Positions 38,654 to 62,075 of a stretch of 64,000 nt of DNA are shown here, in pieces (the first letter of the stretch is position 1; every line of letters begins with the position of its first letter). Under the pieces are notes generated by a model, which saw only the letters and a list, made by a program, of their open reading frames with translations, made no database searches and was not told where the DNA came from. Source of the stretch: Dactylosporangium siamense (lineage in GTDB: Bacteria > Actinomycetota > Actinomycetes > Mycobacteriales > Micromonosporaceae). Location of the stretch: NCBI RefSeq assembly GCF_016862795.1, contig NZ_BONQ01000167.1:1-64000 (forward strand), written 5' to 3'. A program made the position numbers and the translations under genes.

Positions 38654-39091
38654 ATGGGTGCGGAATGGCTGGTGCAGGTGGCGGCCGCCGGCGGATCGGC
38701 GTTCGCTGGGGCGGCCGCCACCGACGCCTGGCGAACGGCGCGCGATGGTGTGGCGCGCCTGTTCGGGCGGGGCGGACCGGCCCGGCAGGAGGCCGTCGAG
38801 GAGTTGGCCGACCGGACCGCGGCCGAGATCCAGAACGCGCCGGCCGATGCCCGCGAACAGGTGCGTGAGCAGTGGGCGCAGACCTGGCAGCAGCAGCTCG
38901 CGGCGCTCCTCGACGAGTATCCGGAGATCGGTGACGAGCTCCTGGCCTGGGCCGAGCAGTTGCGGGCGGAGTCGGCTGCGGCACAGGGACCGGCGACGAT
39001 GACGTTCAGCTCCTACGACAACTCGACGCAGGTCAATGTGCCGAATGGGTCGGTCACCATGCATCTGGGCGAGAACCGCCGTTCGCCGTGA
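38654..39091 (+). CDS. small helical protein coupled to a STAND ATPase
   Basis: A 145-residue protein starting MGAEWLVQVAAAGGSAFAG, an amphipathic Gly/Ala-rich N-terminal helix. A helical middle follows (AREQVREQWAQTWQQQLAALL), then a beta-like tail SSYDNSTQVNVPNGSVTMHL. The layout is common in actinobacterial small proteins next to NTPases and proteases of conflict systems. The tail motif DNSTQVN recurs as DNSTQIN at the N-terminus of the next protein. The ATG has AAGGGG upstream. The stop overlaps the next start by 4 bp (GTGA), so the two are co-translated. It may be an adaptor or effector for the ATPase. Confidence 0.7.
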   Translation: MGAEWLVQVAAAGGSAFAGAAATDAWRTARDGVARLFGRGGPARQEAVEELADRTAAEIQNAPADAREQVREQWAQTWQQQLAALLDEYPEIGDELLAWAEQLRAESAAAQGPATMTFSSYDNSTQVNVPNGSVTMHLGENRRSP

Positions 39092-42675: not shown

Positions 42676-42678
42676 TCG

Positions 42679-46044: not shown

Positions 46045-48557
46045 TGACGCGGCTCCGCCTGACGAATCCAGCGACGTATCCCGGACCAGAGCCGCCCGGG
46101 GCCGTCGAGGTCCGGCGACTCCTCCGCGGCCTCGTCCGGATACATCTGCCGGATCTCCTGCGGCCGCAGCACGGAATCGCCGGCCTCGGCCAGCGTTTCG
46201 ACGAGCGCCCGGTGGAATTCGTCGATCTCGGCGGCCAGGCGATCCGACGCCACGGCCACCGCGGCGTTGGCGAGCTCGCGGCGCAGGCGGAACACGTGGA
46301 TCTGGTGCCGGTGGAGCCGCTGCTCCCGGTTCCCCGCGGATTCCGGCACGTCGGCATGCCAGGGCAACGCCCGATCACGGACCAACGGAAAGCCCGCGGC
46401 GATCGCCGCCGCCTCGTCGCCGTCGACACCCGGGTCCGGATACGGCTGCGCGGCCCAACGCAGATCCAGGATCGCCGCCATGACCAGGTAGCGGTCCTCG
46501 GCGTCGTCGGGGTCGCTGCTCAACCGTCGAAGCCCGGCTCGGAGCACGTCGGCGGTGCCGGGTTCGGTGAAGCGCTCGTGAAGCTCGGCGGCTTCGTCGT
46601 TGCATTGCCGGATCCACCGCTCGACCGCGGCCGCGAACTGCCGCTTTCCCTCGTGAATGACGACGGCGCAGGTCTCGCGGAACGGGGCCCGGAAGGCCTC
46701 CGTCGTGTCGGGCACCACGACCCCCGTGTGCGGCGACCGCCCCGGAAGGCGAAACCTCGTCGACCGCTCGACGGGCCCGGACTTGCGGATGATCCCCTCG
46801 TCGGCACGCTGGAGCAGCATCCGCCACACGTCCCACGATGCGACCGTGGCCTGCGTGGATGCCGCCGCGATCGTGATGACCGGGGTATGGTCCGGGCCGC
46901 GCACGCGGAACGGATCTTCGAATTCGCGGGCCGCGACGGACAGCCGGCCGACATGCTGGCGGAGGCCGTCCATCAGCCACGCGACCTGCTCCCGGGCCGC
47001 ACGCGTGACCTCGTCGGCGGTGTGCGGACCGCCGTCCGGGACGAGCTCCGACAACCGCTGCATCGATCCGGCCAGGCGGGCGTGTTGTCGCTGCGCACCA
47101 CGGAGCTTGAGGTCCAGCCCATGAGCGGTGACGTGACGTCCGACCAGGCGGCGCAGGTGCGCGAAACCGCCGTCGTCGGCGAAGGCGACGAGGGCCGCGG
47201 CCAGCGGGGTGACCGGCTCGGTCCGGCCGAGACGCGTGCCGATCTCGTGCCAGGCGGCGACGGTGGCCGGCGCGGCCGCCCGGGCGATCGCGAGCTTGTG
47301 CTGCTCTTCACCGTCGAACCTGGCCGGCAGCCGGGACCGGTCGATGGCCACCACCGACGACGTCAGGACGATCCGGTCGTCCTGTCCACGCACGAGGTCG
47401 CTCGCGCCCCGGTAGAACTCACCGAACTGCTGCGCGGCCGCACACAGCTCGTCCAGCGTGACCCCATCACCCGGCGGGAGCGCCGGGTGATGGAGCTTGT
47501 CGAGCGCGTTGCCAACGGCGATGATCGACTCGCGGAGGTCTTCCCGGCTGCGACCGTGCCGTTCGAGCATCGTGTAGAAGGCGTCCGGCACGCTCGATCC
47601 GGCCCGTGCCATGTCATAGACCGTGATGATGGTGTGCACGTCCCGGAGCTCGGTGTGGGAGAGGAACTCGTCCCGCTTCGCCGAGCGGCGCGCGGTCAGC
47701 CCGGGGAAGTCGAGGAGCAGGAGTTCGCCGCCGGGCAGCTGCCACAGGTCGGGATCGACGGAGACGCTGTAGCGGACCCTGCGGATCAGTGGAAACGTCT
47801 GGCGCAACCGGGCTTCGTCCTGCCCGACGTCGCGTGGTGACAACGGGTCGGCGGTCCGGCGGTCCGGGAAGGCATTGACGATGTCCGGACCGGCACCCAG
47901 GTCGAGCGCCGCGCGGACAATGCTCTGCGGTGCGGAGACCCGCGTGCCGAGGAGCTGCCCTCCGAGCAGGTGCCCGTCGCGAACGGCGAGCAGTTCCGTC
48001 GCGATCCGCCGGACCTCGATGTTGTCCAGCGGCTCGCCGGCTCCCGGAACGGGCCAGACGTATCGGCGGCACCAGTCCTCGAACCCGGACCAGCCGCCGG
48101 CCGCCGACCAGGTCCCGTCGAGTGCCGCGAGCTCCTCCGACCGGTCGACCAGCCGCAGCACCGTCGCCAGTGCGCCGAGCAGGTACTCGACGCATCCGGT
48201 CAGCTCGGCCTCGGAGAGATATTCGACGACGACGGTGCCGGCGACGGCGCTCGCCTCGCCGGCAGGACCCGGCCGGAGGTGCAGCGCGGTCACGTTGCCG
48301 GTCGCGGCGCGTTGCTCGACCGGCAGCAGGTCGGGACGCCCGAGCAGGGTGCCGATCAGCATCGACTTGCCGACGCTGTATTCGCCGACGACCCCGATGG
48401 CGACCGGGTCGCCTGCCTGCCGCAGCAGGTCGATCGCGTCCTGCGTGGCCTGCTGCCGCTCGCGGGGCGCCCAGGTCCGATCGGTGAACTGGTAGGCGCC
48501 CAGTATCGACAGTGCCGCGTCGGCGTCCTGGCGGAGTCGCTCGATGGAACCAGGCAA
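46041..48557 (-). CDS. SrfC-like dynamin-family GTPase
   Basis: An 838-residue large GTPase. G1 is GEYSVGKS (58-65), a threonine in AATGNVT (~87) could be G2, G3 is DFPG (283-286) and G4 is NALD (350-353). The GTPase is followed by ~450 mostly helical residues with no predicted membrane span. Dynamin-like bacterial proteins bind or remodel membranes; SrfC-type relatives pair with SrfB-like ATPases, as here. The start is TTG at 48557, supported by GAGGAG six bases upstream and the absence of a better in-frame start. It is the first gene of the pair. Confidence 0.78.
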   Translation of the reverse strand: MPGSIERLRQDADAALSILGAYQFTDRTWAPRERQQATQDAIDLLRQAGDPVAIGVVGEYSVGKSMLIGTLLGRPDLLPVEQRAATGNVTALHLRPGPAGEASAVAGTVVVEYLSEAELTGCVEYLLGALATVLRLVDRSEELAALDGTWSAAGGWSGFEDWCRRYVWPVPGAGEPLDNIEVRRIATELLAVRDGHLLGGQLLGTRVSAPQSIVRAALDLGAGPDIVNAFPDRRTADPLSPRDVGQDEARLRQTFPLIRRVRYSVSVDPDLWQLPGGELLLLDFPGLTARRSAKRDEFLSHTELRDVHTIITVYDMARAGSSVPDAFYTMLERHGRSREDLRESIIAVGNALDKLHHPALPPGDGVTLDELCAAAQQFGEFYRGASDLVRGQDDRIVLTSSVVAIDRSRLPARFDGEEQHKLAIARAAAPATVAAWHEIGTRLGRTEPVTPLAAALVAFADDGGFAHLRRLVGRHVTAHGLDLKLRGAQRQHARLAGSMQRLSELVPDGGPHTADEVTRAAREQVAWLMDGLRQHVGRLSVAAREFEDPFRVRGPDHTPVITIAAASTQATVASWDVWRMLLQRADEGIIRKSGPVERSTRFRLPGRSPHTGVVVPDTTEAFRAPFRETCAVVIHEGKRQFAAAVERWIRQCNDEAAELHERFTEPGTADVLRAGLRRLSSDPDDAEDRYLVMAAILDLRWAAQPYPDPGVDGDEAAAIAAGFPLVRDRALPWHADVPESAGNREQRLHRHQIHVFRLRRELANAAVAVASDRLAAEIDEFHRALVETLAEAGDSVLRPQEIRQMYPDEAAEESPDLDGPGRLWSGIRRWIRQAEPRQ

Positions 48558-48902
48558 CGACGCTCCTCACGGAGGATCCGGCAACGATACCTGCCCAGAT
48601 GGTGCCGTGACGCGCTGCGTTTCCGCAATCACCGCACCCGCTGATTCCGCCGTCGTCCGTCCGTCCAGAACGGGGGCGGGCACGGCTGCCGGGTGGGGCG
48701 CCTCCGTGCCTGAGGGGCGTCCCGCGCGCGGGACGGTGACGATCATTGCCGCCACGTCTGTCCGGGCACGCCGCGGAACTTTCATGGCGGCCTCCCCGCG
48801 GAGGCCGCGGGGCCGGCGGCCGGCATCCGGTGGTGTGACGCTCCCATCCGCCCCCGGCGTCCGCCAGGGCCGGGGCTGCAACAAACCTGCAAACGTCTCG
48901 GC

Positions 48903-48931
48903 TTGCCTTGAGGAAAGCGCATTCCTACATT
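48903..48931 (+). promoter_or_regulatory. pectate lyase promoter with operator in the spacer
   Basis: TTGCCT (48903-48908), a 17-bp spacer and TACATT (48926-48931). The spacer contains GGAAAGCGCATTCC (48912-48925), which differs at one base from the perfect palindrome at 49030. A repressor bound there would block polymerase. Confidence 0.65.
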
Positions 48932-49029
48932 GAAGGTCGTCGACTGCACACCCCGCCCCGTTCGCGACGCCAGGGCCGGCCCGGCGTTTTCCGCACGACC
49001 CGTCCATGACCCGGCACCCTTCGTTGCCG

Positions 49030-49043
49030 GGAAAGCGCTTTCC
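49030..49043. promoter_or_regulatory. LacI-family-type operator, perfect palindrome
   Basis: GGAAAGCGCTTTCC is a perfect 14-bp palindrome with the central AGCGCT common to LacI-family sugar regulators. It lies 54 bp before the pectate lyase start and 118 bp from the copy in the promoter spacer. Confidence 0.7.
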
Positions 49044-49096
49044 AATGGGAAGCGCCTGGTGACCGCCAGGCACCATGACATGAAGGTGAGACACGG

Positions 49097-50314
49097 ATGA
49101 GACGATCAACTGCCCTGCGGTGGATATCCGGAGGTGCCGTCGCGGTTGCGGGCGCCGCGGTGACGCTGGTGGTGGCGCTGCCCCAGGCCTCGGCCGCCGA
49201 CGGCCCCAACCTGAGCATCGGCGCCGGCGCCGACGGCTCCAGCAAGGCCAGCGGCACCAGCTACGGCAACGTCAAGGACGGCAACACGAGCACCTACTGG
49301 TCGCCGGCCAGCTCGACCGGCTACGTCTCGGTCAAGTGGAGCAGCGCCACGACGGTGAGCAGCGCCGTCATCCGGCAGGCATCCGGCGGCGGCTCGATTG
49401 GCGCGTGGCGTCTGCTCAACGGCGACAGCGGTGCCGTCCTCACCAGCGGCAGCGGCAGCCCGAGCACCATCTCCTTCTCCTCGACCTCGCTGAAGAAGCT
49501 CACCCTCGACATCACCAGCGCGTCCAGCGCGCCGCGGATCGCGGAGTTCGAGACGTACGCCAGCGGCGGCGGCTCGAACCCGACCCCCACCCCGACGGGT
49601 CCCACCGCCACCCCGACGTCGACCGGTGGCACCGGCACCCCGACCACGACGTGGCCGACGTCGAGGGGCAACGTGTCGATCTCCAGCACGCAGAACGTCT
49701 CGGGCACCTTCGACGGTGGCATGAAGACCTACTGCTGCATCGGTGACGGCGGGCAGAGCGAGAGCCAGGACCCGATGTTCAAGCTGGCCAACGGCGCCAC
49801 CCTGCAGAACGTCATCCTCGGCTCCCCGGCCGGCGACGGCGTGCACTGCGAGGGCACCTGCACCCTGCGCAACGTCTGGTGGAACGACATCGGCGAGGAC
49901 GCCGCCACCTTCAAGGGCACCAGCGGCGGCACCTCGTACGTCATCGGCGGCGGCGCCAGGTCCGGCAGTGACAAGACGTTCCAGCACAACGGCAACGGCA
50001 CCGTGAACATCAGCGGTTTCTACCTCAAGGGCGCCGGCAAGCTGTACCGCGCCTGCGGCAACTGCACCAACTCCTACCAGCGCCACGTCGTCATCGACAA
50101 CGTCATCGTCGACGACGTCGACTACGTGGCCGGCATCAACAGCAACTGGGGCGACACCGCCACCATCACCCGCGTCACCGTGTACAACGGCTCGAGCATC
50201 CACGTCTGCGCCAAGTACAAGGGCGTCGCCAAGGGCAGCGAGCCGAGCTACCTCGGTGACGGCTGGAACGACGCCAACTGCAAGGTCAAGCAGAGCGACG
50301 TCACGTACCGGTAA
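49097..50314 (+). CDS. secreted pectate lyase (PL3) with N-terminal discoidin-like domain
   Basis: A 405-residue secreted enzyme. After the signal peptide (ending ASAAD) is an F5/8-type-C-like carbohydrate-binding domain (~35-152; NLSIGAGADGSSKASGTSYG, ending RIAEFETYAS). A Pro/Thr linker follows, then a PL3 parallel beta-helix (~190-405). Its motifs are DGVHCEGTCTLRNVWW, GEDAATFKG, KTFQHNGNG and RACGNC. PL3 enzymes cleave polygalacturonate by beta-elimination with calcium. GAAGGTGAG is the ribosome-binding site. Two LacI-type operators suggest repression until plant cell-wall sugars are present. Confidence 0.93.
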   Translation: MRRSTALRWISGGAVAVAGAAVTLVVALPQASAADGPNLSIGAGADGSSKASGTSYGNVKDGNTSTYWSPASSTGYVSVKWSSATTVSSAVIRQASGGGSIGAWRLLNGDSGAVLTSGSGSPSTISFSSTSLKKLTLDITSASSAPRIAEFETYASGGGSNPTPTPTGPTATPTSTGGTGTPTTTWPTSRGNVSISSTQNVSGTFDGGMKTYCCIGDGGQSESQDPMFKLANGATLQNVILGSPAGDGVHCEGTCTLRNVWWNDIGEDAATFKGTSGGTSYVIGGGARSGSDKTFQHNGNGTVNISGFYLKGAGKLYRACGNCTNSYQRHVVIDNVIVDDVDYVAGINSNWGDTATITRVTVYNGSSIHVCAKYKGVAKGSEPSYLGDGWNDANCKVKQSDVTYR

Positions 50315-50322
50315 GCAGCAGC

Positions 50323-50350
50323 GGGGCGCCCACCGTCAGGTGGGCGCCCC
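50323..50350. terminator. bidirectional hairpin terminator
   Basis: GGGGCGCCCACC, loop GTCA and GGTGGGCGCCCC form a perfect 12-bp stem between the convergent pectate lyase and kinase genes. It could stop transcription from both sides. Confidence 0.88.
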
Positions 50351-50372: not shown

Positions 50373-52472
50373 TCAGCCGAGCGGGCTGTTGCTCACCGAG
50401 TTGATGAACCCGCAGCAGCAGGCGGCCACGGTCCACAGGCAGCCGACGACGACGGCGGCCTGCGCGCACAGCCGCTCGTTGGCGGGCATCCACAGCGAGC
50501 GGGTGAGGGCCACCACGGCGACGATGACCCCGACCGGGCCCACGGCGAACGCGAGGGCGAGCGCGACATAACCGAGCGCCGGCGCGTCCGAGGTGGGCGA
50601 CGGCGGGTGCGGAGCGGGTGGCGGGTACGGACCGGGTGGCGGCGGAACGCTCGTCCCGTACGGCGGCAGGGGCTGCGTCCTGACGTACTGGTGCGGCCGC
50701 TGGTAGGGCGGCGGGTACGGCGCGGCACGCGGCTGGGTCGGCGGCGGACCGCCGGCCGGCGCCGCGGTGGACGCCCCCGAAGACTGCCAGGACGACGTCG
50801 ACGATGCCGAAGGCCGCGACGTCGACGACGTTGGCGTCGACGTTGACGAGGACCGCTTTGACGACGACGTCGACGGCCGTGACGCCGAAGGCCGCGATGA
50901 CGACGATGACGACGGTGATGACGGCGGCGACGCTGACGGCCGGGACGACGGCGATGGCGTGGTGGGCGTGGTGGAAGTAGCGGGAGGGGCGGGCGTCGCG
51001 GGTTTCGGCGTGGCCGGTGGGCTGGTGGACGCGGCGGCCCGTGGGGCGGTGCCCGCCATCCCCGACTGGGCGTAGAGCCGGCCCAGCCGCGTGTCCAGGT
51101 CGTCGGCCCGGCCCGCACCGCCCGGCACCCGCTGGGTGGGAGCCGGTGCCGGGGCCGGGGCCGGGGCTGGGGCTGGAGGCGCCGGCGGGCGCAGCAGCCG
51201 GTTCGCCTCCAGCGACGTGATCCGGCGCAGCGCCCGCGCCGAGCGGAGCTCGATCTGCGGTGTCAGCTTGCCCCGCTTCGGCTGGTACACGGTGATCATG
51301 CCGGTCACCGCGACCCAGGTCCCCTCGAGGTCGGCGACGCTGGTCGCGGCGCGGGCCAGCTGGCGGCTGCCCTGCTCCCAGGCGACCACGGTGAAGTCGC
51401 CGCGCCGGTGGTCACCGAAGTTGATGAACGTGATCAGGGTGTTGCGGTCCAGGACCCGGGTCGCGCTGACCTTGCCCACGACCGTGACCGTGTCGCCCTG
51501 CCGTTGCAGGAGGCCGGCCCGGTCGTGCGCCGAGATCGCCGCGGGGGCGGTGCCGGTGGCGGTGCCGGCGGCGCGTGGCGCCGGCCGCGCGGGTGGCGGG
51601 GTGGCGCCCGACAGCACCGCCGGCATCGTGTCGTAGTCGACGGTGCACGCGGCGGCCAGGAGGGCGCTGCGGGACGCGACCGCGGGAATGCCCGCCAGGC
51701 GGGTGAAGAGCCTGGACGCGGCCGGGTCGGCGAAGTCGGCGGCCGAGAAGATCAGGTTTTCCCAGCTGTTGAAGTCGCCGAACAGCGTGGGATCGTGGGT
51801 GAGGGCCTCGAGGGAGAGGTCGACGACGTACGCGGCGAAGACGTCGAGGGTGGCGTCGAAGCGGCTGCCGCGGCCGGGGTGCTGATAGTTCGGGTGGCCC
51901 TGCTCGGAGGCGCCCAGCCGGTCCAGGGACGGCAGGTACATGCCGTCGTAGTCGATGAACCGCACCGCGTTGCCCGGGCCGACGAGGATGTTGCCGTGCT
52001 GCAGGTCGCCGTGCGCGGCGCCGCGTTCCCGCAGCGCCTGGGCGCCGGCGGCGATCTGCCGGCGGATCGCGCCGATCGCGGCGGGTTCGCCGAGGTGATC
52101 CTCGAGCCAGTCGTTGAGCCGCGCGCCGGAGACCCAGGGCATCCGCACGATCGGCTGGACCGCGCCGTTGACCCGGATGCCGTCGGGCAGGTACTCCACC
52201 GCGACCAGCACGTCCAGACCCGCCGCCTCGACGAACTCGGCGACCCGGGCGTACCGCTCCTGCAGGTGGTCGCTCGGCTTGTGGAAGCAGCGGACGGCGT
52301 ACCGCCGGCCGTTGACGCCGATGTCGAACGTCAGCGCGAACCCGCCGGACGCGACGACCGGCGAGCCGAGCGGGTTCAGCCGTGGCTGGCCCTGGCGCAG
52401 CTCCCGGTCCAGGAACGCGAGCTGCGGCAGCTGCACCGCCTGCTGGTAGTCGACGAGCGCGGGCAGCCTCAT
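50373..52472 (-). CDS. TerY-P-type protein kinase with OB-fold and C-terminal membrane anchor
   Basis: A 699-residue protein. A compact kinase domain (~1-270) has a candidate Lys65 (AVRCFHK), catalytic loop HGDLQHGN (154-161) and metal-binding IDYDGMY (173-179). An OB-fold nucleic-acid-binding-like domain follows (~320-420, DTVTVVGKVSATRVLDRN). A long Pro/Ser/Thr low-complexity stretch, ~140 residues, leads to two C-terminal membrane helices of DUF4190 type (~615-695). The kinase-OB arrangement with PP2C and vWA partners is the TerY-P triad described for Ter-linked stress systems. The ATG at 52472 overlaps the phosphatase stop (ATGA). It is the third gene of the operon. Confidence 0.87.
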   Translation of the reverse strand: MRLPALVDYQQAVQLPQLAFLDRELRQGQPRLNPLGSPVVASGGFALTFDIGVNGRRYAVRCFHKPSDHLQERYARVAEFVEAAGLDVLVAVEYLPDGIRVNGAVQPIVRMPWVSGARLNDWLEDHLGEPAAIGAIRRQIAAGAQALRERGAAHGDLQHGNILVGPGNAVRFIDYDGMYLPSLDRLGASEQGHPNYQHPGRGSRFDATLDVFAAYVVDLSLEALTHDPTLFGDFNSWENLIFSAADFADPAASRLFTRLAGIPAVASRSALLAAACTVDYDTMPAVLSGATPPPARPAPRAAGTATGTAPAAISAHDRAGLLQRQGDTVTVVGKVSATRVLDRNTLITFINFGDHRRGDFTVVAWEQGSRQLARAATSVADLEGTWVAVTGMITVYQPKRGKLTPQIELRSARALRRITSLEANRLLRPPAPPAPAPAPAPAPAPTQRVPGGAGRADDLDTRLGRLYAQSGMAGTAPRAAASTSPPATPKPATPAPPATSTTPTTPSPSSRPSASPPSSPSSSSSSRPSASRPSTSSSKRSSSTSTPTSSTSRPSASSTSSWQSSGASTAAPAGGPPPTQPRAAPYPPPYQRPHQYVRTQPLPPYGTSVPPPPGPYPPPAPHPPSPTSDAPALGYVALALAFAVGPVGVIVAVVALTRSLWMPANERLCAQAAVVVGCLWTVAACCCGFINSVSNSPLG

Positions 52473-53179
52473 GGGTGGACCACGCACAGCGTCGTGTCGT
52501 CGTTGCCGAGCAGGCCGCGCCGCCGGTACCCGGCCACCCGCCGGCTGAAGTCCGCCCGCAGCGCCTCGATCGGCGGGGTCCCGCGGTGCGTCTCGTGGCG
52601 GGTCAGGATGAACTTCGCCAGGGCGTCGGTGGCGAGCACGAACACGTCACCGGGCCGGTACTCACCGGTCCACAGTGGACACTCCATCGGGCCGTCCTCG
52701 GGCCGGGTGCTCAGCGCGGCGGGAAACCGGTTGAACGCGGCGGAGTCGGCGATCGGGGCGGCGAGCAGCAGGTCGGCGCCGCGGAAGTGGAACACGCAGG
52801 AGTCGCCGACGGCCGTCACCCGATACGTGCGGGCCGCGGCGTCCAGGGTCAGGCCGGCGAACGTGGCCGCGCCGCCCCGCAGCAGCTTCGCCTGCGCGTA
52901 CCAGGGCAGGTCCGGAGCCGAGACGGCGGCGAGCCACCGGCCGCGCAGCACCGTCAGCGCGGCGCAGGGCTCCACCGCATCGTGCACGTAGGCGTCGACC
53001 AGGATCCGGCTCCACACCTCGGCCCGGGCCGAGGTCGCGGCACCGTCGGCGACCGCGAACCGGCCCCCGGCGGCGTCGACGGCCGCGCTGTCCTCGTTCT
53101 CATCCGGGGACCGGCCCAGCTTCACCACGCTGTGCAGCGACGCCCTCAGCCCGCGCCCCGTGACGTCCGGTGGGCTCAC
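52469..53179 (-). CDS. PP2C-family protein phosphatase (TerY-P triad)
   Basis: A 236-residue phosphatase. Metal-binding motifs are SPDENEDSAAVD, FAVADGAATSA, TAVGDSCVFHF, FVLATDALAKF and the closing GNDDTTLCVV. The canonical DG in the second motif is kept (ADGAA). It is the counterpart of the kinase encoded next to it. The GTG at 53179 overlaps the vWA stop by 4 bp (GTGA). The frame is open further upstream, but no domain sequence lies there. It probably removes phosphates placed by the triad kinase, possibly on the vWA protein. Confidence 0.9.
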   Translation of the reverse strand: MSPPDVTGRGLRASLHSVVKLGRSPDENEDSAAVDAAGGRFAVADGAATSARAEVWSRILVDAYVHDAVEPCAALTVLRGRWLAAVSAPDLPWYAQAKLLRGGAATFAGLTLDAAARTYRVTAVGDSCVFHFRGADLLLAAPIADSAAFNRFPAALSTRPEDGPMECPLWTGEYRPGDVFVLATDALAKFILTRHETHRGTPPIEALRADFSRRVAGYRRRGLLGNDDTTLCVVHP

Positions 53180-54051
53180 CGCATGTCGTCGTCGGTACCG
53201 TCGGTGAGCTCGCGCAGGCCGTTCGGCGTGACGGCCCGGGTGCCGATGTCGAGGAACTCGATCATCGTGGTGGCGTCGGCGTTGTAGAGGAACCCGCGGG
53301 AGCCCGGCTCGATGTGGTAGCCGAGCGCCGCCGCCGCCTCGGCGAGGTTGCCCGGCAGCACGCTGGACATCTCGAACATGACGTCGGCGTTGCTGGCCGG
53401 CAGCCCGGCCGGCGAGCTCGGGAACGAGACGGCCTGCCGCGGACCGGCGGCCAGGTGCACGTTGAACAGCAGCACCGCGCCGTCGGCGGTCTTGACCGAG
53501 CGGACCCGGTCGGCGGCCGGTCGCGGGTCGCCGTCGGTGCTCTCGCCGTCGGTGACGTTGATGACGATCGGCGGGAAGCTGGTCTGATGCCGGGCGCACC
53601 AGTCGGCGACGACGCGCTCCGCCGTCTCCAGCGCGGCCACCATCGGCGTCCAGCCGTTGCTGACCGGGTCGACCCACACCGGGATCGGCAGGGTCGCCTC
53701 GATGATCCCACCGGCGCCGTCGGGGATCTTCCGGGTGACCTGGTCGACCCGTTTCGGGTGCTCCGCGAGTTGACTGATCGGTAACACGATGTGCCCGGCA
53801 TCGGATCCGTGCAGGGCCGGGCTGACGCCGGTGCCGTATCCGATGACGCCAATCTCGAAGTAGTCGTAGACCCGATTGTCGCCCTTGCTGCACAGCAGCA
53901 CGGCATTACCGAGCAGGCGATTCACGGCAAGGGCCAGTTGCTCCGCCATGGAGGTCCCGGTGTCGGCCCATGGGCTTCCCATCGAACTGGAATGGTCGAT
54001 GAGGATCAGCAGGCAGGCCGGGCGCATGCGGTTGATCTCCGCGGAGTACAC
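53176..54051 (-). CDS. TerY-like von Willebrand factor A protein
   Basis: A 291-residue vWA protein. The MIDAS is LILIDHSSSMGS (with the conserved Asp and Ser-x-Ser), WTPMVAAL supplies the threonine, and IVINVTDGEST follows. The GTG at 54051 gives VYSAEINRMRPACLL; an ATG at 54027 with GGAG upstream is the alternative. With GTG the transcript could be leaderless: TAACTG ends ~7 bases before it, with TTGCTG 18 bases further up. It is the first gene of the vWA-PP2C-kinase operon. In this triad the vWA protein is thought to be the phospho-regulated scaffold. Confidence 0.87.
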   Translation of the reverse strand: MYSAEINRMRPACLLILIDHSSSMGSPWADTGTSMAEQLALAVNRLLGNAVLLCSKGDNRVYDYFEIGVIGYGTGVSPALHGSDAGHIVLPISQLAEHPKRVDQVTRKIPDGAGGIIEATLPIPVWVDPVSNGWTPMVAALETAERVVADWCARHQTSFPPIVINVTDGESTDGDPRPAADRVRSVKTADGAVLLFNVHLAAGPRQAVSFPSSPAGLPASNADVMFEMSSVLPGNLAEAAAALGYHIEPGSRGFLYNADATTMIEFLDIGTRAVTPNGLRELTDGTDDDMR

Positions 54052-54157
54052 GTCAATACAGTTACCATCTCCGGTGATCACCCAGCAACCCCGGTATCGC
54101 GTCTTGCGTCAATCTGCAAAGCTGTGCGAGCTGCCGTGATGGGACCGGGGGAGAGCG
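54052..54157. promoter_or_regulatory. divergent control region with small palindrome
   Basis: This 106-bp gap lies between the vWA-PP2C-kinase operon and the nuclease-helicase operon. GGTGATCACC (54073-54082) is a perfect 10-bp palindrome. It falls within the -35/-10 spacer I propose for the leftward transcript (TTGCTG and TAACTG on the minus strand). One regulator here could control both arms. Confidence 0.5.
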
Positions 54158-55594
54158 ATGGCGTCGGTGCGCGGACTGTCGGCCGGTGACCCGCCGATCA
54201 ATCTGCGGGTGCACGAGATCCGCTGCGCGAATGTCGAAGGTGCCCGCGAGGAGTTCGAGGACATGCTCGCCGCGCTGGTGCGGGTGACACGGCCCGGCGC
54301 GTTTCGGATTCAGGTCGGCCGGGGCGACGGCGGAATCGACGTGATGACCGGCGACCTGCGCGGCGGGGACATCGCCATCTGGCAGGCGAAGTATTTCATT
54401 CACCTGGGCAGCGACCAGTACGGGCAGATCAGGAAGTCATTCAGTTCGGCGCTCGCGGAGGCCGGCCGGCGGGGCAATCGCATCACCGATTGGATGCTCT
54501 GCGTGCCGGTGCTGCTGACCCGCACCGCGCGGATGTGGTGGGAGACCTGGCGGGAGCAGACCGAAAAGGACACCGGCGTGCGGATCGCCCTGTGGGACGC
54601 GACGGTCCTGCGGGAGCACCTGATCGCGCCCGCCGCGCACGCCGTCAGGGCGCACTACTACGGCGCCGCCGCGCCGGCACCGTCCCTCCCTCCGGCCGGC
54701 CCGGCGCTCTACCTCCCGCCGGACGGGCCGGCGACCGCCCCGCCGGACGCGGCGTGGGCGCCGGGGGACGAGCGGCGGATCGGCGCGGCGACCTGCTTCC
54801 TGCACGACGACGCCCTCGAGACCGCCGGTGCCGGTCGCGCCTGGCTGTGGCGCGAGGCCACCGCCGACCGCCTCGACGGCGCAGCAAGCGTCGCCCAGGT
54901 CCGCGTCGCGCAGGTCCGCGTGCTGCGCGCGACGCCGGCCGCGGAGGCGGTGCGGGCCGGCCTCAGCGCCCAGGCCCGGCTGCTGACCGGGCTCGCCGGC
55001 CGGCACCACCTGCCGGCCGTCGTCGCGCTGCACGACGAGGAGGGCACCCGCACGCTGATCACCGCCCGGCCGCCCGGCCCGACCTGGCGGGAAGCGTACG
55101 GCCCCCGCCCGGGCCGGGCGCTGGACCGGATCACCACCGCGGCGGTCTGCGCGACGGCCGTCTCCCTCGCCGAGGCGCTGACGGCGCTGCACCGGACCGG
55201 CCACGCCCACCGCGCCACCGGCCCGGACACGGTCGTGGTGGACCCGCGGCGCCGCCGCGCGGCGCTGCGCGACGGCGGGCTGGCCGCGCTGCCGAGGACC
55301 GTCCCCGACGGGCCGGCGGAGCACCGGGCACCGGAGCAGGCGGTCGCCGCGGACACCGCCGGCGGGCCGGACACCGCCGTCGACGTGTACCGCTTCGCGG
55401 CACTGCTGCACGCGACGCTGACCGGGCATCCGCCGCAGTGGCCACCGCTGCCGGTGCGGGCCACCTGCCCCGACCTGCCGCAGTCGCTGGACGACCTGCT
55501 GCTGCTCGGGCTGAACGCCGACCCCGCGCTGCGCCCGGCCGGGCTCGAGCCGTTCGCGGCCGAGCTGCGCCGGGTGGGTGGCGGCGCGCGATGA
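54158..55594 (+). CDS. Mrr-like restriction nuclease fused to a pseudokinase
   Basis: A 478-residue fusion. The N-terminus is a PD-(D/E)XK nuclease of the Mrr type: RGDGGIDVMTG supplies the Asp (~61) and IAIWQAKYF supplies Q-x-K (76-78). After a Pro-rich linker (~168-200), residues ~205-478 follow a Ser/Thr kinase fold. They lack key residues: the HRD-N loop is HRATGPDT, and the DFG is replaced by LRDGG. The part corresponding to APE survives (EHRAPEQA). It is probably a non-catalytic sensor arm controlling the nuclease. GGGGGAGAG precedes the ATG. The stop overlaps the helicase start (ATGA). Confidence 0.82.
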   Translation: MASVRGLSAGDPPINLRVHEIRCANVEGAREEFEDMLAALVRVTRPGAFRIQVGRGDGGIDVMTGDLRGGDIAIWQAKYFIHLGSDQYGQIRKSFSSALAEAGRRGNRITDWMLCVPVLLTRTARMWWETWREQTEKDTGVRIALWDATVLREHLIAPAAHAVRAHYYGAAAPAPSLPPAGPALYLPPDGPATAPPDAAWAPGDERRIGAATCFLHDDALETAGAGRAWLWREATADRLDGAASVAQVRVAQVRVLRATPAAEAVRAGLSAQARLLTGLAGRHHLPAVVALHDEEGTRTLITARPPGPTWREAYGPRPGRALDRITTAAVCATAVSLAEALTALHRTGHAHRATGPDTVVVDPRRRRAALRDGGLAALPRTVPDGPAEHRAPEQAVAADTAGGPDTAVDVYRFAALLHATLTGHPPQWPPLPVRATCPDLPQSLDDLLLLGLNADPALRPAGLEPFAAELRRVGGGAR

Positions 55595-58539
55595 CGGTCG
55601 TCGAGGTGCGGCTGCCCGGTCCGCTGGCGCTCGTGCCGTCGCAGGGTGCGATGCGGCGGCTGGGCCACGACCTGCCCGACCCGGTGACCCTCGCCGCGGA
55701 GCTGACCCGGCTGTCGCAGCGGGACGGGCTGCCGGCCCGCATCGACGAGAGCCGCAGCCGGCCGTCGCTGGCCGTCTACACCGACTCGTGCGTGCTGTGG
55801 CTGGGCCTGACCCAGAACGGTGACGCCTACCGGATCAACGGCGCCGCGCCCAAAGGGCTCAAGGACCACGCGTCGCTGGTCAAGGGCGCGCTGCTGCTGC
55901 GGACCGGGGCGGCGTGGTGGGCGCTGCCGGATGTCGCGGACGTGGCGCGGATGCGCCGCGAGCGGGGCATGACGTTCGACACGTCGTTCTCCCAGCTGCT
56001 CGCCGCCTGGCGCGCCGGCCTGGCCGTCGCCGCGTCGCCGCCCGCAAACCCGGCCCACACGAGGTTTCTCGACGTGCTGACCGAGGTCGTCGAGGCGGGG
56101 CGGGAGATCGACGCGGCGAAGCTGCGCGACGCGGAGCCGCTGCGCTACCGGCAGCGGGCCGCCACCCGCGAGCAGCGCCACTCCGCCCGCGGCGTCTACG
56201 ACTTCACGCTGCTGCGCCGGCCGGACCTCGTCAAGGGCGCCGTGGTGCGGATCGAGGAGCGACCGGCGCTGCGCGGGCGGGTCGTGCACATCCGGGACCG
56301 CACCGTCACCGTCCGGTTCGAGTCCACAGTGGACTTCCCGGCGATCCCGCCGCAGGGCGGGCTGCGCCCGCTGCCCAGCGACCGGGTCTACACCAAGCAG
56401 CTCGAGGCCATCGGCGCGATCCGCAAGGGCCGGGCCGCCACCGACCGGCTGCTGCCGATGCTCGTCGACGGTCACGTCCTGCCGTACCAGCCGGAGGCGC
56501 ACGCCCGCCCGGCCGGCGTCGCCGACGACGAGCAGCTGCGGGTGTTCCGGCGCGCGCTCGGCGTGCGCGACGCGCTGCTCGTGCTCGGCCCGCCCGGCAC
56601 GGGCAAGACCTGGACCATCGGTGAGATCGTCGCCGCCTGCGCCGCCCGGGGCGAGCGGGTCCTGCTCACCTCGCACACCAACCGGGCCGTCGACAACGTC
56701 CTGGAACGGCTCCCTCCGCACCTGCGCGCGGTCCGGGTCGGCAACGAGGACGCGCTGACCGCGGGTGCCCGCACCTACCTCGCCGAGACGCAGGTCGAGG
56801 CGCTGCGCGAGGAGATCCTGCGGCGCACCGAAGGCGCCGCCGCCCGGCTCGCCGGGGTGGCCGGCGGCCACGTCGACCGCTGGTCGGTCCACCTCACCGA
56901 CCGGCTGGCGGAGGCGACCTCGGCGGAGCAGGCCGTGACCGCCGCCGCCGGGGCCCGCGAGCATGCCGTGCGCCGGGTGACGCTGCCGCTGCGCGAGCGC
57001 GCCGAAGCGGCGGAGCAGGCCGTCGCGCGCGCCGAGGAGGCCCTCGAGGCGGCGCGGCGGGCCGAGGCCACCGCCCGCGACCGCATCACCCGGATCGCGT
57101 CGCTGCCCGGGCTGCTGCGCGGCGTCCTCGGCCTGCTGGAGCGCCCGCTGCGGCGCAGGGCGGACCGCGCCGCGCAGGTCGGCGCCGAGGCGGGGGCGGC
57201 GCTCACCCGGGCCCGCTCCGAGCTCGCCACCGCGGAGGGTGCGGCGCGGGTCGTCGCCGACGGCGACCCGGAGGTCACCCGGCTCGGCCGGGTGGTCACC
57301 GCCGCCGAACGGCACCGCGACGAGACCCTGCGACGCGTCGAGCAGGCCGCCGCCGGACTGCGCTCGGCGCTGCCCGCGGACGTGCGGCCCGCACCGGAGC
57401 CGGCGCAGGGACCGGCGGGTCCGGCGGTGGACCTCGCCGGTCGGCACCGGGAGGCCGCCGCCCTCGCCCGGGCGGCCGCACAGTCCCGTGCCCGCGCGAC
57501 GTTGCTCGCCCAGTGGCGGGACCGGGTCCCGACCTCGGGCGCCAGCCTGCAGCGCGAGCTGGTCAAGTACGCCGACGTGGTGGCCGCCACGTGCATCGGC
57601 ACCGCGACCACGGAGCTCCTCGCGGAGCTCGAGTTCGACGTCGCCGTCGTCGACGAGGCTGGCCAGATCTCGCTGCCGAACCTGCTCGTCCCCCTGGCCC
57701 GGGCCAGGCGGGCCGTGCTCGTCGGCGACCACCGGCAGCTGCCGCCGTTCCTGGACGAGGACGTGCGCCTCTGGGCGCAGCGCAGGGCCGCCGACCCGGA
57801 CGCCGACCCGGGCACCGGCGCGCAGATCGGTGACCTGCTGACCCGCAGCGGATTCGAGCGGCTCTACGGCACGCTCGGCGAGGACCACCGCGACATGCTG
57901 CAGCTGCAGCGGCGGATGCCCGAGGAGCTCGCCACCTTCGTGTCCCGCACGTTCTACAACGGACGGTTGCGGACCCGGCACCCGGGCGGCGGCGGGAACC
58001 CGGTCTTCCGCAGCCCGTTCGCGATGGTCACGACCGCCGACCGGCCGGCCGCGGAACGCGGCGAGCGGCGACCGCCGAAACGGGCGGAGTCCCACGGCTA
58101 TGTCAACCCGCTGGAGGCCGGGCTGATCGTCGAGCTCGTCACCGGCCTCACCGCCTGGCACCCGGACTGGGGCGTCATCCTGCCGTACCGCGCCCAGGTC
58201 GACCTGGTCCGTGAGCTGCTCGACGCCCGGCTCGGGGACCCCGGCCGCACCGCCGAGTGCGTCGGCACCGTCGACGCGTTCCAGGGCGGCGAACGCGACC
58301 TCATCATCTTCGGGTTCGTGCGCAGCAACGACGACGGCCGGGTCGGCTTCCTCGACGAGCTGCGCCGGCTCAATGTCGCCATCAGCCGCGCCCGCCGCCA
58401 GCTCGTCCTCGTCGGCGACACCGACACCCTGGAACGGGCCGGTGACGAGAAGTTCCGCCAGGTGATGCAGGCGATGACGGCGTACCTGCGGCACAGCGGC
58501 GACCTGCGCACCTCCGCCGAGATCACGGCGGTGCTGTAG
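55591..58539 (+). CDS. superfamily 1 (UPF1/DNA2-like) helicase
   Basis: A 982-residue SF1B-type helicase. After a ~320-residue N-terminal region, Walker A is LGPPGTGKTWT (~331-341) and motif Ia is LLTSHTNRAVDNVLERL. A long insertion rich in Ala/Arg/Glu coiled coil follows (~380-640). Walker B is VVDEAGQIS (~687), then GDHRQLPP, VGTVDAFQGGERDLIIF and LNVAISRARRQL. All helicase motifs are intact. Co-translation with the nuclease/pseudokinase (ATGA overlap) and with the next protein suggests a DNA- or RNA-processing complex. Confidence 0.93.
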   Translation: MTVVEVRLPGPLALVPSQGAMRRLGHDLPDPVTLAAELTRLSQRDGLPARIDESRSRPSLAVYTDSCVLWLGLTQNGDAYRINGAAPKGLKDHASLVKGALLLRTGAAWWALPDVADVARMRRERGMTFDTSFSQLLAAWRAGLAVAASPPANPAHTRFLDVLTEVVEAGREIDAAKLRDAEPLRYRQRAATREQRHSARGVYDFTLLRRPDLVKGAVVRIEERPALRGRVVHIRDRTVTVRFESTVDFPAIPPQGGLRPLPSDRVYTKQLEAIGAIRKGRAATDRLLPMLVDGHVLPYQPEAHARPAGVADDEQLRVFRRALGVRDALLVLGPPGTGKTWTIGEIVAACAARGERVLLTSHTNRAVDNVLERLPPHLRAVRVGNEDALTAGARTYLAETQVEALREEILRRTEGAAARLAGVAGGHVDRWSVHLTDRLAEATSAEQAVTAAAGAREHAVRRVTLPLRERAEAAEQAVARAEEALEAARRAEATARDRITRIASLPGLLRGVLGLLERPLRRRADRAAQVGAEAGAALTRARSELATAEGAARVVADGDPEVTRLGRVVTAAERHRDETLRRVEQAAAGLRSALPADVRPAPEPAQGPAGPAVDLAGRHREAAALARAAAQSRARATLLAQWRDRVPTSGASLQRELVKYADVVAATCIGTATTELLAELEFDVAVVDEAGQISLPNLLVPLARARRAVLVGDHRQLPPFLDEDVRLWAQRRAADPDADPGTGAQIGDLLTRSGFERLYGTLGEDHRDMLQLQRRMPEELATFVSRTFYNGRLRTRHPGGGGNPVFRSPFAMVTTADRPAAERGERRPPKRAESHGYVNPLEAGLIVELVTGLTAWHPDWGVILPYRAQVDLVRELLDARLGDPGRTAECVGTVDAFQGGERDLIIFGFVRSNDDGRVGFLDELRRLNVAISRARRQLVLVGDTDTLERAGDEKFRQVMQAMTAYLRHSGDLRTSAEITAVL

Positions 58540-59691
58540 ATGGCGGCCATCTACCCGGTGGCCCGGGCGGTCGAGCACGCCGCAGGTCTCGCCGGGGTGC
58601 AGCCGCTGCGGGTCTTCGCCGTGCTCTGGCCGCTGTGGCAGGTCGAGATCACCGCGCGGGTCGAGGACCCGGCGGAGTACGAGCTGCTGGACTCGTTCGT
58701 CACCCGCGCCGTCGGTCAGGCCGGCCTCGACACCGCGGCGGCGGTCGCGGGCTTCCTGGGCCTGGGGGAGCGCACCGTGCGCGGCTGCGTGCAGTATCTG
58801 ATGACCGTCGGGCACCTCACCGCCGACGGCGAACGCCTCGAGCTGACGCCACGCGGCCTGCGGTCGATGCACGACGGCCGCCGGTACGAGTCGAAGGAGG
58901 TCCGCCAGCAGCTGCTGTTCGACCGGTACACCGCCGGGCCGTTCCCACGCTCGCACTACGCCAACGCGGTCACCGTGCTGGACCGGCCCGAACCGTCGCT
59001 GGACGGGGTGCGTGGCAGCCGCTTCACCGCGCTGTTCGCCAGCACCGCGTTCCGCCCCGAGATCGTCGACGCCCTCGTCCGCCGGCCGGACCGCACCGGC
59101 TACAACGTGCCCGCCGAGATCGACCGGCCCCGCGTCGACGGCGTGCGGGACGCGTGGCTGCCGGCGTACCTGGTGCGGACCGGGCAGGGCCTGCTCGCGT
59201 ACACGGCCGCCAGCGACGGCCGCGACGCCTTCGTCGAAGGGTTGTGCCGCCAGGCGCCGGAGGTCACCAGCGCGCTGCCGGACACGCCCCCCGAGGACGC
59301 CGAACGACGCTGGGAGGCGTGGCTGCGCAAGGAACACGGCGGCGGCACCCTGCGCCGGCAGCCCAACGGTGTCTGGCGCGGCACCCTGCCGGCGTCGGCG
59401 TTCGCGGCCGGCAACCGGCGGCTCGCCTCCTACGTGGTGCACGACGAGCTGTTCCTGCAGCTGTGGTGCGACGACCGGGCGCTGCGCCGCACCGCCATGC
59501 GCGACCGTGCGCTGCGGATCGCGCAGAGCCGCGACGTCGACAGCCGCGCCGCCCTCGACCGCCGCCTCGGCGACCTCGGCCGCCAGTACGAGGTCGAGCC
59601 GTCCACTGTGGACGACCTGCGGGCGCATGCGGGGCGGACCGGCCAGGAGGACCTGCTCGCCCGCCTCGAAGCCCTGCCCGCCACGTCGTAG
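58540..59691 (+). CDS. winged-helix-like protein of the helicase operon
   Basis: A 383-residue protein that I do not recognise. Its ATG immediately follows the helicase stop. Residues ~55-115 look like a winged helix (VGQAGLDTAAAVAGFLGLGE, then LELTPRGLRSM). Two later segments are rich in aromatic and charged residues (LRKEHGGGTLRRQPNGVWRG; VVHDELFLQLWCDD). No catalytic motif is visible. It may be the DNA-binding or specificity subunit for the helicase-nuclease pair, an inference from gene order only. Confidence 0.7.
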   Translation: MAAIYPVARAVEHAAGLAGVQPLRVFAVLWPLWQVEITARVEDPAEYELLDSFVTRAVGQAGLDTAAAVAGFLGLGERTVRGCVQYLMTVGHLTADGERLELTPRGLRSMHDGRRYESKEVRQQLLFDRYTAGPFPRSHYANAVTVLDRPEPSLDGVRGSRFTALFASTAFRPEIVDALVRRPDRTGYNVPAEIDRPRVDGVRDAWLPAYLVRTGQGLLAYTAASDGRDAFVEGLCRQAPEVTSALPDTPPEDAERRWEAWLRKEHGGGTLRRQPNGVWRGTLPASAFAAGNRRLASYVVHDELFLQLWCDDRALRRTAMRDRALRIAQSRDVDSRAALDRRLGDLGRQYEVEPSTVDDLRAHAGRTGQEDLLARLEALPATS

Positions 59692-59852: not shown

Positions 59853-62075
59853 ATGCGCATTCCCCGATGGGTTCCGCTGCGTGCCGTAGTGGCCGCAGCC
59901 GTCCTGACGGGCGCGGTCGGGGTGGCGCAGCTGCGCGCCGCCGACGCCGCCCCCACGGCGGCAGCAGCCGCCTCCACCATCACCGTGGACACCGACCGCC
60001 AGTTCGGCACCCTGCGCAAGGCCGGCCTCGGGACCCTCTTCGGAGTGGCCGCCGCGCCGGACACGCCACGCGAGCTGATGATCGCCTCGCAGCGGTACCT
60101 CAGCCAGCACCAGAGCGCCCAGGGCGACGCCTCCTATCCGACGTCGACCGAGGCGGTCGTGGGCAAGCTGCGCGGCACCGACGTCAAGATGATCGGACGC
60201 TACAACGACCTCATGGGCGGCTGGCCCTACGACTGGAAGGGCACCGCCGACTGGTACGCCAAGGTGGACAGTGCGACCCGCTCCATCCAGGCGTACAAGG
60301 ACGTCCTGCTCGCGGTCGCGCCGTTCAACGAGCCGGACAACAAGCTGCAGGGCGGGTTCGCGCAGGACGCCGCCGTGCCCGGCACCACCTACGACGAGAA
60401 GTTCAACTGGCTGTGGACGCAAACGTTCCGCCGCATCCGCGCCATCGACCCGAGCATCCCCATCATGGGGCCGAACTACGAGTTCTACCTCGGCTGGCAG
60501 CCCGCGCTGCAGACGAAGATGCGCGACTTCCTCGTCAACGCCCGCAACACCGGCACCGTGCCCAACCTGATCGGCTGGCACAACCTCGGCCAGAGCCCGG
60601 GTGACGTGCCGGAGACGCTCAGCCGGTACTACCGACCCCTGGAGAACGAGCTCGGCATCCCCGGCCGGCCGCTGCCGGTCGTCATCGAGGAGTACGGCTC
60701 GGGCGCCGCGAAGGACTTCGAGGGCGTCCCCGGCTCGATGATCAAACACTGGGCGGAGTTCGAGCGGTACGACGTCGACCACGCGATGATGGGCATCTAC
60801 ACCAACCCGGGGCTGCTGGGCAACACGCTGCGGCGCACCTCGGCGGGGCTCAAGCCGAACGCCGGCTGGCAGATGATGGCGTGGTACAAGGCGATGACCG
60901 GCACCCGCGTCGACGTGAGCCGGTGGGACACCCGGCACTACCTGGCCTGCGACGGCGTCGCCAGCTGGGACGGCGGTAACCGCACCGTGCAGGTCCTCGT
61001 CGGCGGCGAGGACAACGACGTCGACGTGCGGGTGCTGGGCCTGGCCCGGCGCGGCCTGACCGGCAACGTGCGGGTCCGGGTCGACTCGGCGGTGTGGACG
61101 GTCGACCCCCTGGCGACCGACCGCAACGTCCAGGCCGGCGGCGACTGGCAGGGCGCGCCGCTCAACCTCCTCGACTCGACCATGACGGTCGACGCCTCCG
61201 GCGCGCTGACCGTGCCGATCCACCGGATGGAGGGCTACAACGGCTACCGGATCCTCATCTCGCCGGCCGCCGGACCCGCCGCGTATCCCACGAAGTACGA
61301 GGCGGAGCAGGCCCAGCGGGTCAACGCGGCGGCCAGGTCCGGCAGTGCCGTCGCGTCCGGGAACGGCTGGGTCGGCGGCATCGACTTCGCCGACAGCGCC
61401 GTCACGTTCACCGTCACGGCAGCGGCGGCCGGCATCCACACGATGACGGTCCGCTACGCCAACGGCACCACCGCCGCGAACGCCACCCACACGGTGCGCG
61501 TCAACGGCCAGCCGCAGGGCTCGGTCACCTACCCCGCGGTGACGAGCGGCTGGGCGAACTCGGAGCTGCGCACCACCACGAAACGGGTGGCGTTGCGCGC
61601 CGGCACCAACACCATCACCCTCGGCAAGGGCACCGGTTACGCGGAGCTCGACTTCATCGACGTGCGCCCCGACACCCACCGCTACGAGGCCGAGCTGGCC
61701 ACCGTGACCAACGCCCGCATCGGCGGCTTCCGCTGGAACGAGTTCCCCGACAAGGTCGGTGGCATCGACTTCCCGGACAGCGCCGTCGAGTTCGCGGTGG
61801 AGGCGCCGATGACGGGCACCTACCGCCTCGAGGTCGGCTACGCCAACGGCACCACCGCGACGTCCACCCACCTGGTGTCCGTCAACGGCGGCGCCGCGGG
61901 CACCGTCTCCTACCCGGGCACCGGCGCGTGGTTCGACGGCCCGACCCAGGACCGCGCCGGCCGCGTCGCCGCGGTGACGGTCGCGCTCACCGCCGGCACC
62001 AACCGGATCCGCCTGCGGAAGGGCACCGGCTACGCCGAGCTCGACTACGTCGAACTCAAGAAGACCGACGCCTGA
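59853..62075 (+). CDS. secreted clan GH-A glycosidase with two CBM35/CBM6-like domains
   Basis: A 740-residue secreted enzyme. After the signal peptide comes a TIM-barrel-like catalytic region (~45-380). Asn-Glu160 (APFNEPDN) is the likely acid/base, and Glu279 or Glu280 (VVIEEYGSG) the likely nucleophile. A beta-sandwich region follows, then two carbohydrate-binding modules (~480-605 and ~610-740), each starting with a YEAE motif and ending GTGYAELD. The family could be GH39-like, but I cannot fix it. AAGGTGAGG precedes the ATG. The operator upstream implies oligosaccharide-responsive repression. Its 3' end overlaps the convergent amidohydrolase gene by 20 bp. Confidence 0.85.
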   Translation: MRIPRWVPLRAVVAAAVLTGAVGVAQLRAADAAPTAAAAASTITVDTDRQFGTLRKAGLGTLFGVAAAPDTPRELMIASQRYLSQHQSAQGDASYPTSTEAVVGKLRGTDVKMIGRYNDLMGGWPYDWKGTADWYAKVDSATRSIQAYKDVLLAVAPFNEPDNKLQGGFAQDAAVPGTTYDEKFNWLWTQTFRRIRAIDPSIPIMGPNYEFYLGWQPALQTKMRDFLVNARNTGTVPNLIGWHNLGQSPGDVPETLSRYYRPLENELGIPGRPLPVVIEEYGSGAAKDFEGVPGSMIKHWAEFERYDVDHAMMGIYTNPGLLGNTLRRTSAGLKPNAGWQMMAWYKAMTGTRVDVSRWDTRHYLACDGVASWDGGNRTVQVLVGGEDNDVDVRVLGLARRGLTGNVRVRVDSAVWTVDPLATDRNVQAGGDWQGAPLNLLDSTMTVDASGALTVPIHRMEGYNGYRILISPAAGPAAYPTKYEAEQAQRVNAAARSGSAVASGNGWVGGIDFADSAVTFTVTAAAAGIHTMTVRYANGTTAANATHTVRVNGQPQGSVTYPAVTSGWANSELRTTTKRVALRAGTNTITLGKGTGYAELDFIDVRPDTHRYEAELATVTNARIGGFRWNEFPDKVGGIDFPDSAVEFAVEAPMTGTYRLEVGYANGTTATSTHLVSVNGGAAGTVSYPGTGAWFDGPTQDRAGRVAAVTVALTAGTNRIRLRKGTGYAELDYVELKKTDA

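What the first reader, a model, noticed from the sequence alone, without database searches (positions are those of the whole stretch)
50373..59691. TerY-P triad divergent from a nuclease-pseudokinase / helicase / winged-helix operon
Seen: a vWA-PP2C-kinase(OB) operon and a nuclease/pseudokinase-helicase-unknown operon read away from a shared 106-bp region, with every internal junction overlapping or abutting. Known: TerY-P triads are phospho-switch modules linked to Ter stress systems and to DNA processing. Inference: the two arms form one system in which reversible phosphorylation, read by the pseudokinase, licenses a nuclease-helicase. A role in phage or plasmid defence or DNA-damage response is plausible. 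No terB/C/D genes are in view.
Basis: partly seen in the sequence, partly recalled or inferred. Interest (0 to 1): 0.8.

Follow-up and report, generated by a model that had tools for sequence, protein, structure and literature searches.

The report
Helicase defence cassette with phospho-switch triad
Six adjacent genes in a soil actinomycete look like one anti-virus cassette, made of a helicase-linked DNA-cutting system (a split relative of the known system Mokosh, with a dead kinase) and a known three-gene protein-phosphorylation defence module that sits with it in this genus but usually lives apart from it elsewhere.

Summary
Observation confirmed. The minus arm (54051-50373) is a PADLOC TerY-P triad (TerY 4.7e-81, PP2C 2.1e-29, STK_OB 5.1e-91), a published antiphage module. 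The plus arm (54158-59691) is a Mokosh relative: an SF1 helicase matching the helicase half of MkoA (4.1e-111), an MkoB-like winged-helix protein without a PLD motif, and a separate gene that fuses a LmuA-type nuclease to a pseudokinase.

In relatives helicase and winged-helix genes stay while the domain fused to the pseudokinase changes (LmuA nuclease, Cap4-like nuclease, DUF4145, hydrophobic segment), as in immune systems with exchangeable effectors.

'One system' is partly right. In 250 Micromonosporaceae genomes, 2 of 8 TerY genomes and 2 of 19 cassette genomes have the arms adjacent, so mostly they occur apart. Both cases are Dactylosporangium, with different layouts and sites, and are not sisters in helicase and pseudokinase trees. 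In one, the six genes lie as a 9.2-kb block between rsmE and neighbouring genes; 5 of the 6 other genus genomes, including the window's own, lack it there (the sixth was not placed).

New variant of known kinds; antiphage function is inferred, not shown.

The parts
53176..54051 (-). TerY-type vWA protein, MIDAS residues intact (DHSSS from D19, T135, D168 of the 291-aa form)
   Evidence: PADLOC TerY 4.7e-81; alignment and motif check
52469..53179 (-). PP2C-type protein phosphatase; Asp motifs present, judged by eye on the alignment
   Evidence: Pfam PP2C_2 2.2e-5, PADLOC PP2C 2.1e-29, alignment
50373..52472 (-). Atypical protein kinase + OB fold + two C-terminal hydrophobic segments; HGDLQHGN and DYD kept, Arg where the VAIK Lys is expected
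   Evidence: PADLOC STK_OB 5.1e-91; alignment; hydrophobic segments 630-662 and 667-693
54052..54157 (.). 106-bp shared divergent upstream region
   Evidence: sequence; no sigma-70-like promoter, no repeats of 8 or more found in 54020-54200
54158..55594 (+). LmuA-type restriction-like nuclease (about residues 10-173) fused to a pseudokinase
   Evidence: PADLOC LmuA 7.5e-38; kinase part PD-T4-6 1e-11 and MkoA 4.1e-8; invariant nuclease residues, lost kinase residues
55591..58539 (+). SF1 UPF1/DNA2-like helicase, matching the helicase half of MkoA; motifs GPPGTGKT, DEAGQ, GDHRQLPP, NVAISRA present
   Evidence: PADLOC MkoA 4.1e-111 over profile 517-1100/1112; Pfam; PDB sequence relatives DNA2, SMUBP-2, UPF1; motifs
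58540..59691 (+). MkoB-like winged-helix protein without the PLD motif
   Evidence: PADLOC MkoB 6.3e-14; no HxK/R....D/E motif; AF2 model
50323..50350 (.). Perfect 12-bp inverted repeat between the convergent pectate lyase gene and the kinase-OB gene; possible terminator, not listed by the terminator scan
   Evidence: scan

Best explanation
A composite anti-phage cassette. Core (plus arm): the UPF1-like helicase and MkoB-like wHTH protein sense or process abnormal nucleic acid. The pseudokinase, probably descended from an active kinase of the MkoA or a related defence kinase, acts as a scaffold that ties the core to an exchangeable effector, here a LmuA-type nuclease, and releases it on infection. 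Add-on (minus arm): a TerY-P triad whose kinase-OB, PP2C and metal-binding vWA protein set the phosphorylation state of the core or of host proteins, and so raise or lower the trigger threshold. Shown here: gene identities by profile, loss of kinase residues, the conserved helicase-wHTH core, change of the fused domain between relatives, and presence or absence of all six genes as one block in a congener. Inferred: defence function, descent of the pseudokinase, complex formation, scaffold role, phospho-control between the arms.
For: PADLOC matches for both arms, and MkoA and MkoB matches also in the differently fused relatives tested (MkoA: L037, L035, L061; MkoB: L035, L061). In nine canonical MkoA proteins read on plasmids HRD....N is intact in 9 of 9; in the window family the Asn is lost in 18 of 18 readable and the HRD Asp in 14 of 18. 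Helicase sequence lies beside WH in 19 of 19 family loci read, in pieces in L057 and L059; four kinds of fused domain. Six-gene block in L072 absent from that site in 5 congeners placed. The two TerY-P-linked cassettes are united in 6% (HEL), 0% (PSK) and 32% (WH) of bootstrap trees. Precedents: TerY-P triads accompany a UPF1-like helicase in CoCoNuT types II and III-A (PMC11090510, passages); a PP2C gene follows MkoA-MkoB in 3 of 9 canonical loci read.
Against: 17 of 19 cassettes have no TerY-P, so the core does not need it; 6 of 8 triads lack the cassette. Only two linked cases, one genus; strongly supported branches do not rule out a single origin. The pseudokinase matches the PD-T4-6 kinase profile better (1e-11) than MkoA (4.1e-8) and NCBIfam lanthionine-synthetase and MAD6 kinases below their cut-offs, so its descent from MkoA rests mainly on gene order. 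The triad's kinase has Arg for the VAIK Lys. In the window, genes further left (39088-48557) also have PADLOC matches, so clustering of unrelated defence genes is possible. No experiment shows defence by the plus arm.
Confidence: 0.55

Rival explanations
1. Two independent defence systems that are neighbours: a stand-alone TerY-P and a stand-alone Mokosh-like nuclease-helicase system, united only by the tendency of defence genes to cluster and move together.
For: TerY-P is reported to work alone (PMC11090510 and PMC10889362, passages). 6 of 8 triads and 17 of 19 cassettes occur apart. Co-occurrence across 250 genomes is not significant, P = 0.12. Four of the six other triads have an Mrr-type nuclease upstream. 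Other genes in the window match PADLOC: 39088-42675 HEAT-ARM_XIII 6e-52 (a repeat protein), 46041-48557 LeoA 1.4e-5, 42679-46044 PDC-M61B 3.5e-4.
Against: The immediate neighbours in the window are a pectate lyase gene and a CBM-bearing gene. In the second linked genome the six genes form one block at another site, in another layout.
Confidence: 0.33
2. A DNA-damage or stress-response module rather than defence: the triad senses metal or stress and controls repair by nuclease-helicase.
For: UPF1/DNA2-like helicase; vWA MIDAS intact; TerY-P linked to tellurite resistance in older work (as cited in PMC11090510).
Against: Patchy distribution (8 and 19 of 250 genomes), changing fused domains, LmuA and Cap4 nuclease domains known from defence (labels), no TerD on the contig.
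Confidence: 0.1

Closest known systems
TerY-P (TerY, PP2C, STK_OB; Gao et al. 2020, recalled and as cited in PMC11090510, PMC7699616)
   Same: All three PADLOC proteins, contiguous; OB fold on the kinase
   Different: Lies beside a nuclease-helicase cassette; in the genus the two are found together
Mokosh type I (MkoA, MkoB; Millman et al. 2022, recalled; nine plasmid loci read here)
   Same: Kinase-related domain, SF1 helicase and MkoB-like wHTH, in that order
   Different: Kinase and helicase on two genes; kinase dead; nuclease fused to the pseudokinase; MkoB-like protein lacks the PLD motif
Type II and III-A CoCoNuTs (PMC11090510, passages read)
   Same: TerY-P with a UPF1-like SF1 helicase
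   Different: No McrB match found; kinase carries OB rather than zinc ribbon. The CoCoNuT helicase itself was not compared, for want of a sequence
Lamassu LmuA
   Same: N-terminal nuclease domain of the effector protein
   Different: No SMC-type partner among the six genes; fused to a pseudokinase

Membership tests
TerY-P | TerY vWA + PP2C + kinase-OB genes contiguous | tested here: met
TerY-P | OB domain on the kinase | tested here: met
   STK_OB 5.1e-91; Pfam tRNA_anti-codon only 0.002, below its cut-off; region aligns with L034 and L086
TerY-P | catalytically active kinase | tested here: inconclusive
   HGD....N and DYD kept; VAIK Lys is Arg, as in 6 of 10 rows aligned, window included
TerY-P | anti-phage activity | not testable with these tools
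   experiment needed
Mokosh type I | SF1 helicase of the MkoA type | tested here: met
   4.1e-111
Mokosh type I | kinase and helicase in one MkoA protein | tested here: not met
   two genes, 54158-55594 and 55591-58539
Mokosh type I | kinase with HRD....N (9 of 9 canonical MkoA read) | tested here: not met
Mokosh type I | MkoB with PLD motif (6 of 9 canonical MkoB read have it) | tested here: not met
   MkoB match only to residues 27-142; no motif
CoCoNuT type II/III-A | McrB-like GTPase and McrC in the operon | tested here: not met
   no such Pfam match among the six genes or the neighbours scanned, 38627-50314 and 59853-63962
Lamassu | LmuA with SMC-like LmuB | tested here: not met
   LmuA domain present, no SMC match among the six
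Ter system | linked terD gene | tested here: not met
   20 TerD matches in the genome, none on contig C167
Ter system | linked terB or terC gene | not tested
   no search made

The most novel reading that the evidence does not exclude
A new composite immune architecture: a Mokosh-related system in which an ancestral active kinase became a pseudokinase adaptor for exchangeable effectors, and in Dactylosporangium a TerY-P triad has taken over the phospho-signalling in trans, so that two separately described defence systems work as one six-gene unit.
Probability: 0.37. Interest if true: 0.78.

Novelty: new variant of a known kind. Interest (0 to 1): 0.56.

Why it matters
It offers a natural test of what TerY-P does: in the passages I read its target is not named, and here candidate target proteins are encoded next to it and, in a congener, come and go with it. 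It also suggests that kinases of helicase defence systems can lose catalysis and become adaptors for swapped effectors, an arrangement that profiles built on the fused MkoA see only in pieces.

Tried and rejected
Ter stress island: not supported, no TerD on the contig. CoCoNuT: rejected, no McrB match. Divergent layout as a conserved feature: rejected, the only other linked locus is co-directional. Shared insertion site: rejected; only the pectate lyase flank has close relatives in the genus, and in the two stretches read (G064, G106) nothing of the island matches beside it. Empty site for the window itself: not found. Repeats in the 106-bp region: none. Relatives in viral contigs: 0 confirmed of 50 pattern matches. 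Phylum draw: TerY in 4 of 396 genomes, WH in 1 of 396 (the window's genome in both counts); only 6 and 4 candidates per listed genome were scored, so these are lower bounds. Fold search of the winged-helix model: no match at E 0.001 or better. Fold search of the nuclease-pseudokinase model listed only kinases in its best 50, so it says nothing on the nuclease.

Rows set aside before counting: of 34 genomes with a WH match I counted the 19 with E below 1e-40; the other 15 match only part of the protein, 5 of them were read (L064-L068) and look like a different chromosomal pair. Some stretches end at contig ends (L038, L060, L061, L069), which weakens absence there. Of 229 plasmid records matching the helicase I read 11 chosen by hand; L085 (unannotated, partial matches) and L094 (archaeal, helicase only) were dropped, leaving 9 canonical loci. 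PADLOC was run on MkoA of three of them (L082, L084, L091) and MkoB of three (L082, L083, L091); the others rest on similarity and annotation. L057 is not among the 18 readable pseudokinases because the motif was not found. Tree rows are the best-matching stretch only; the L071 helicase is partial (43% of columns).

Not in print: searches listed no paper that I could see describing the pairing or the pseudokinase variant. The library lacks most subscription papers, including Anantharaman 2012 (not held); Gao 2020 and Millman 2022 are recalled, or seen only as cited.

Full report
What is there. The vWA start is probably GTG 54051, because the same start sequence opens the relative in L034, which makes the shared region 106 bp. 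The window is G000:C167. It shares its genus with G115, whose contig C36 has the length and place of Dactylosporangium sp. AC04546, so I call the genus Dactylosporangium and the family Micromonosporaceae.

Minus arm. PADLOC names all three proteins as TerY, PP2C and STK_OB. TerY-P with an OB-fused kinase is described as a stand-alone antiphage system (PMC11090510, PMC7699616, passages), and TerY-P protected Pseudomonas cultures from phage (PMC10889362, passages). MIDAS residues are present and PP2C Asp motifs too, by eye; the kinase keeps HGD....N and DYD but has Arg for the VAIK Lys, so its activity is open.

Plus arm. The helicase matches MkoA from profile position 517 to 1100 of 1112 at 4.1e-111; the kinase part of the upstream gene matches MkoA 47-277 at 4.1e-8 (PD-T4-6 better, 1e-11); the last gene matches the N-terminal part of MkoB. 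It reads like Mokosh type I with MkoA cut between kinase and helicase. As yardsticks I read nine canonical MkoA-MkoB loci on plasmids: HRD....N is intact in 9 of 9 and the MkoB PLD motif present in 6 of 9. In the three without it, all Alphaproteobacteria, a PP2C gene follows directly, an independent hint that Mokosh can be tied to reversible phosphorylation. In the window family the catalytic Asn (18 of 18 readable) and mostly the HRD Asp (14 of 18) are lost, the MkoB-like protein has no PLD motif, and here a LmuA-type nuclease domain with E34, D57, D61, Q76 and K78 invariant in five aligned sequences is fused to the pseudokinase. The nuclease domain also occurs without the pseudokinase; one such gene, L050, is LmuA at 3e-93.

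Changing fused domain. In the 19 family genomes with a strong WH match, helicase sequence lies beside it in all 19 (in pieces in L057 and L059) and a pseudokinase was found in 17. With two Streptosporangium loci the domain ahead of the pseudokinase is LmuA-type nuclease in 7 loci (window, L031-L034, L069, L071); a Cap4-like motif in L037, L038, L046, L057, L058, and in a separate frame in L045; DUF4145 in L035, L036, L041; a hydrophobic segment in L061-L063. Pfam puts Cap4_nuclease above its cut-off only in L046; L038, L058 and L037 are weaker (2.9e-5, 0.0028, 0.013) and L057 shows none. No fused domain or pseudokinase was found in L059 and L060.

Do the arms belong together? Across 250 family genomes TerY occurs in 8 and the cassette in 19; both in 2, expected 0.6, P = 0.12. 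Six triads stand without the cassette, four of them with an Mrr-type nuclease upstream. L031-L033 have no TerY-P in the stretch read, nor does either Streptosporangium locus, though L069 ends about 1 kb beyond the WH gene. Within the genus TerY is found in 2 of 7 genomes, the same two with the full nuclease-pseudokinase gene, adjacent in both (P = 0.048 on tiny numbers); G044 has a broken Cap4-type cassette and no TerY. The second locus, L034/L072, is co-directional: nuclease-pseudokinase, helicase, WH, TerY, PP2C, kinase-OB. The two cassettes are not united in the helicase or pseudokinase trees and are unresolved in the WH tree; one origin is not excluded. Their TerY proteins are 66% identical, against 41-46% to the four others aligned.

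One block. In L072 the six genes lie between rsmE and a stretch with a minus-strand frame (an SDR by my reading) and a HIT gene (labels by eye, no family scan). Both sides match without the 9.2-kb block in the window's own genome (L096) and in G044, G064, G095 and G081 (L097-L100; in G081 the HIT gene is on another contig): 5 of the 6 other genus genomes. G106 has rsmE but no close HIT match and was not placed. Gene calling showed nothing but the six genes in the block, apart from frames on the opposite strand that I take for artefacts; no scan for mobility genes was run. Insertion rather than repeated loss is the simpler reading. This is the strongest evidence that both arms move as one unit.

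Mechanism. I favour a helicase-wHTH sensor tied through a pseudokinase to a nuclease, with TerY-P setting the threshold. Sensor, adaptor and threshold roles are inference. That TerY-P accompanies UPF1-like helicases in CoCoNuTs (PMC11090510) makes a helicase-linked role plausible. PglW of type 2 BREX, with NERD nuclease, pseudokinase and kinase (PMC12839542, passages), is a precedent for nuclease-pseudokinase fusion in defence.

Verdict. Observation confirmed, interpretation partly supported, and the plus arm identified as a split, pseudokinase-bearing Mokosh relative with exchangeable effector domains.

Noticed in passing
window 42679-48557 (-): Adjacent genes with a 4-base overlap: a dynamin-like GTPase (Dynamin_N 3e-6; PADLOC LeoA 1.4e-5) and an 1121-aa protein with a weak SrfB match (1.2e-6).
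   Followed up: partly
window 39088-42675 (+): 1195-aa protein with many WD40 repeats, PADLOC HEAT-ARM_XIII 6e-52.
   Followed up: no
L051-L054: TerY-P triads preceded by an Mrr-type nuclease on the same strand (Pfam run on L051 and L053 only); by eye their kinases lack the OB region and have hydrophobic segments instead.
   Followed up: partly
L082, L088, L089: Plasmid Mokosh loci of Alphaproteobacteria with a PP2C gene directly after MkoB and an MkoB without the PLD motif.
   Followed up: partly
L057 (G044): Broken copy of the cassette in another Dactylosporangium: helicase with 3 TGA and 2 TAG inside.
   Followed up: no
L064-L068: A helicase and wHTH gene pair related to the cassette's last two genes, by eye next to TetR-like and RND-transporter-like genes in the three loci gene-called (L064, L065, L067).
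   Followed up: no
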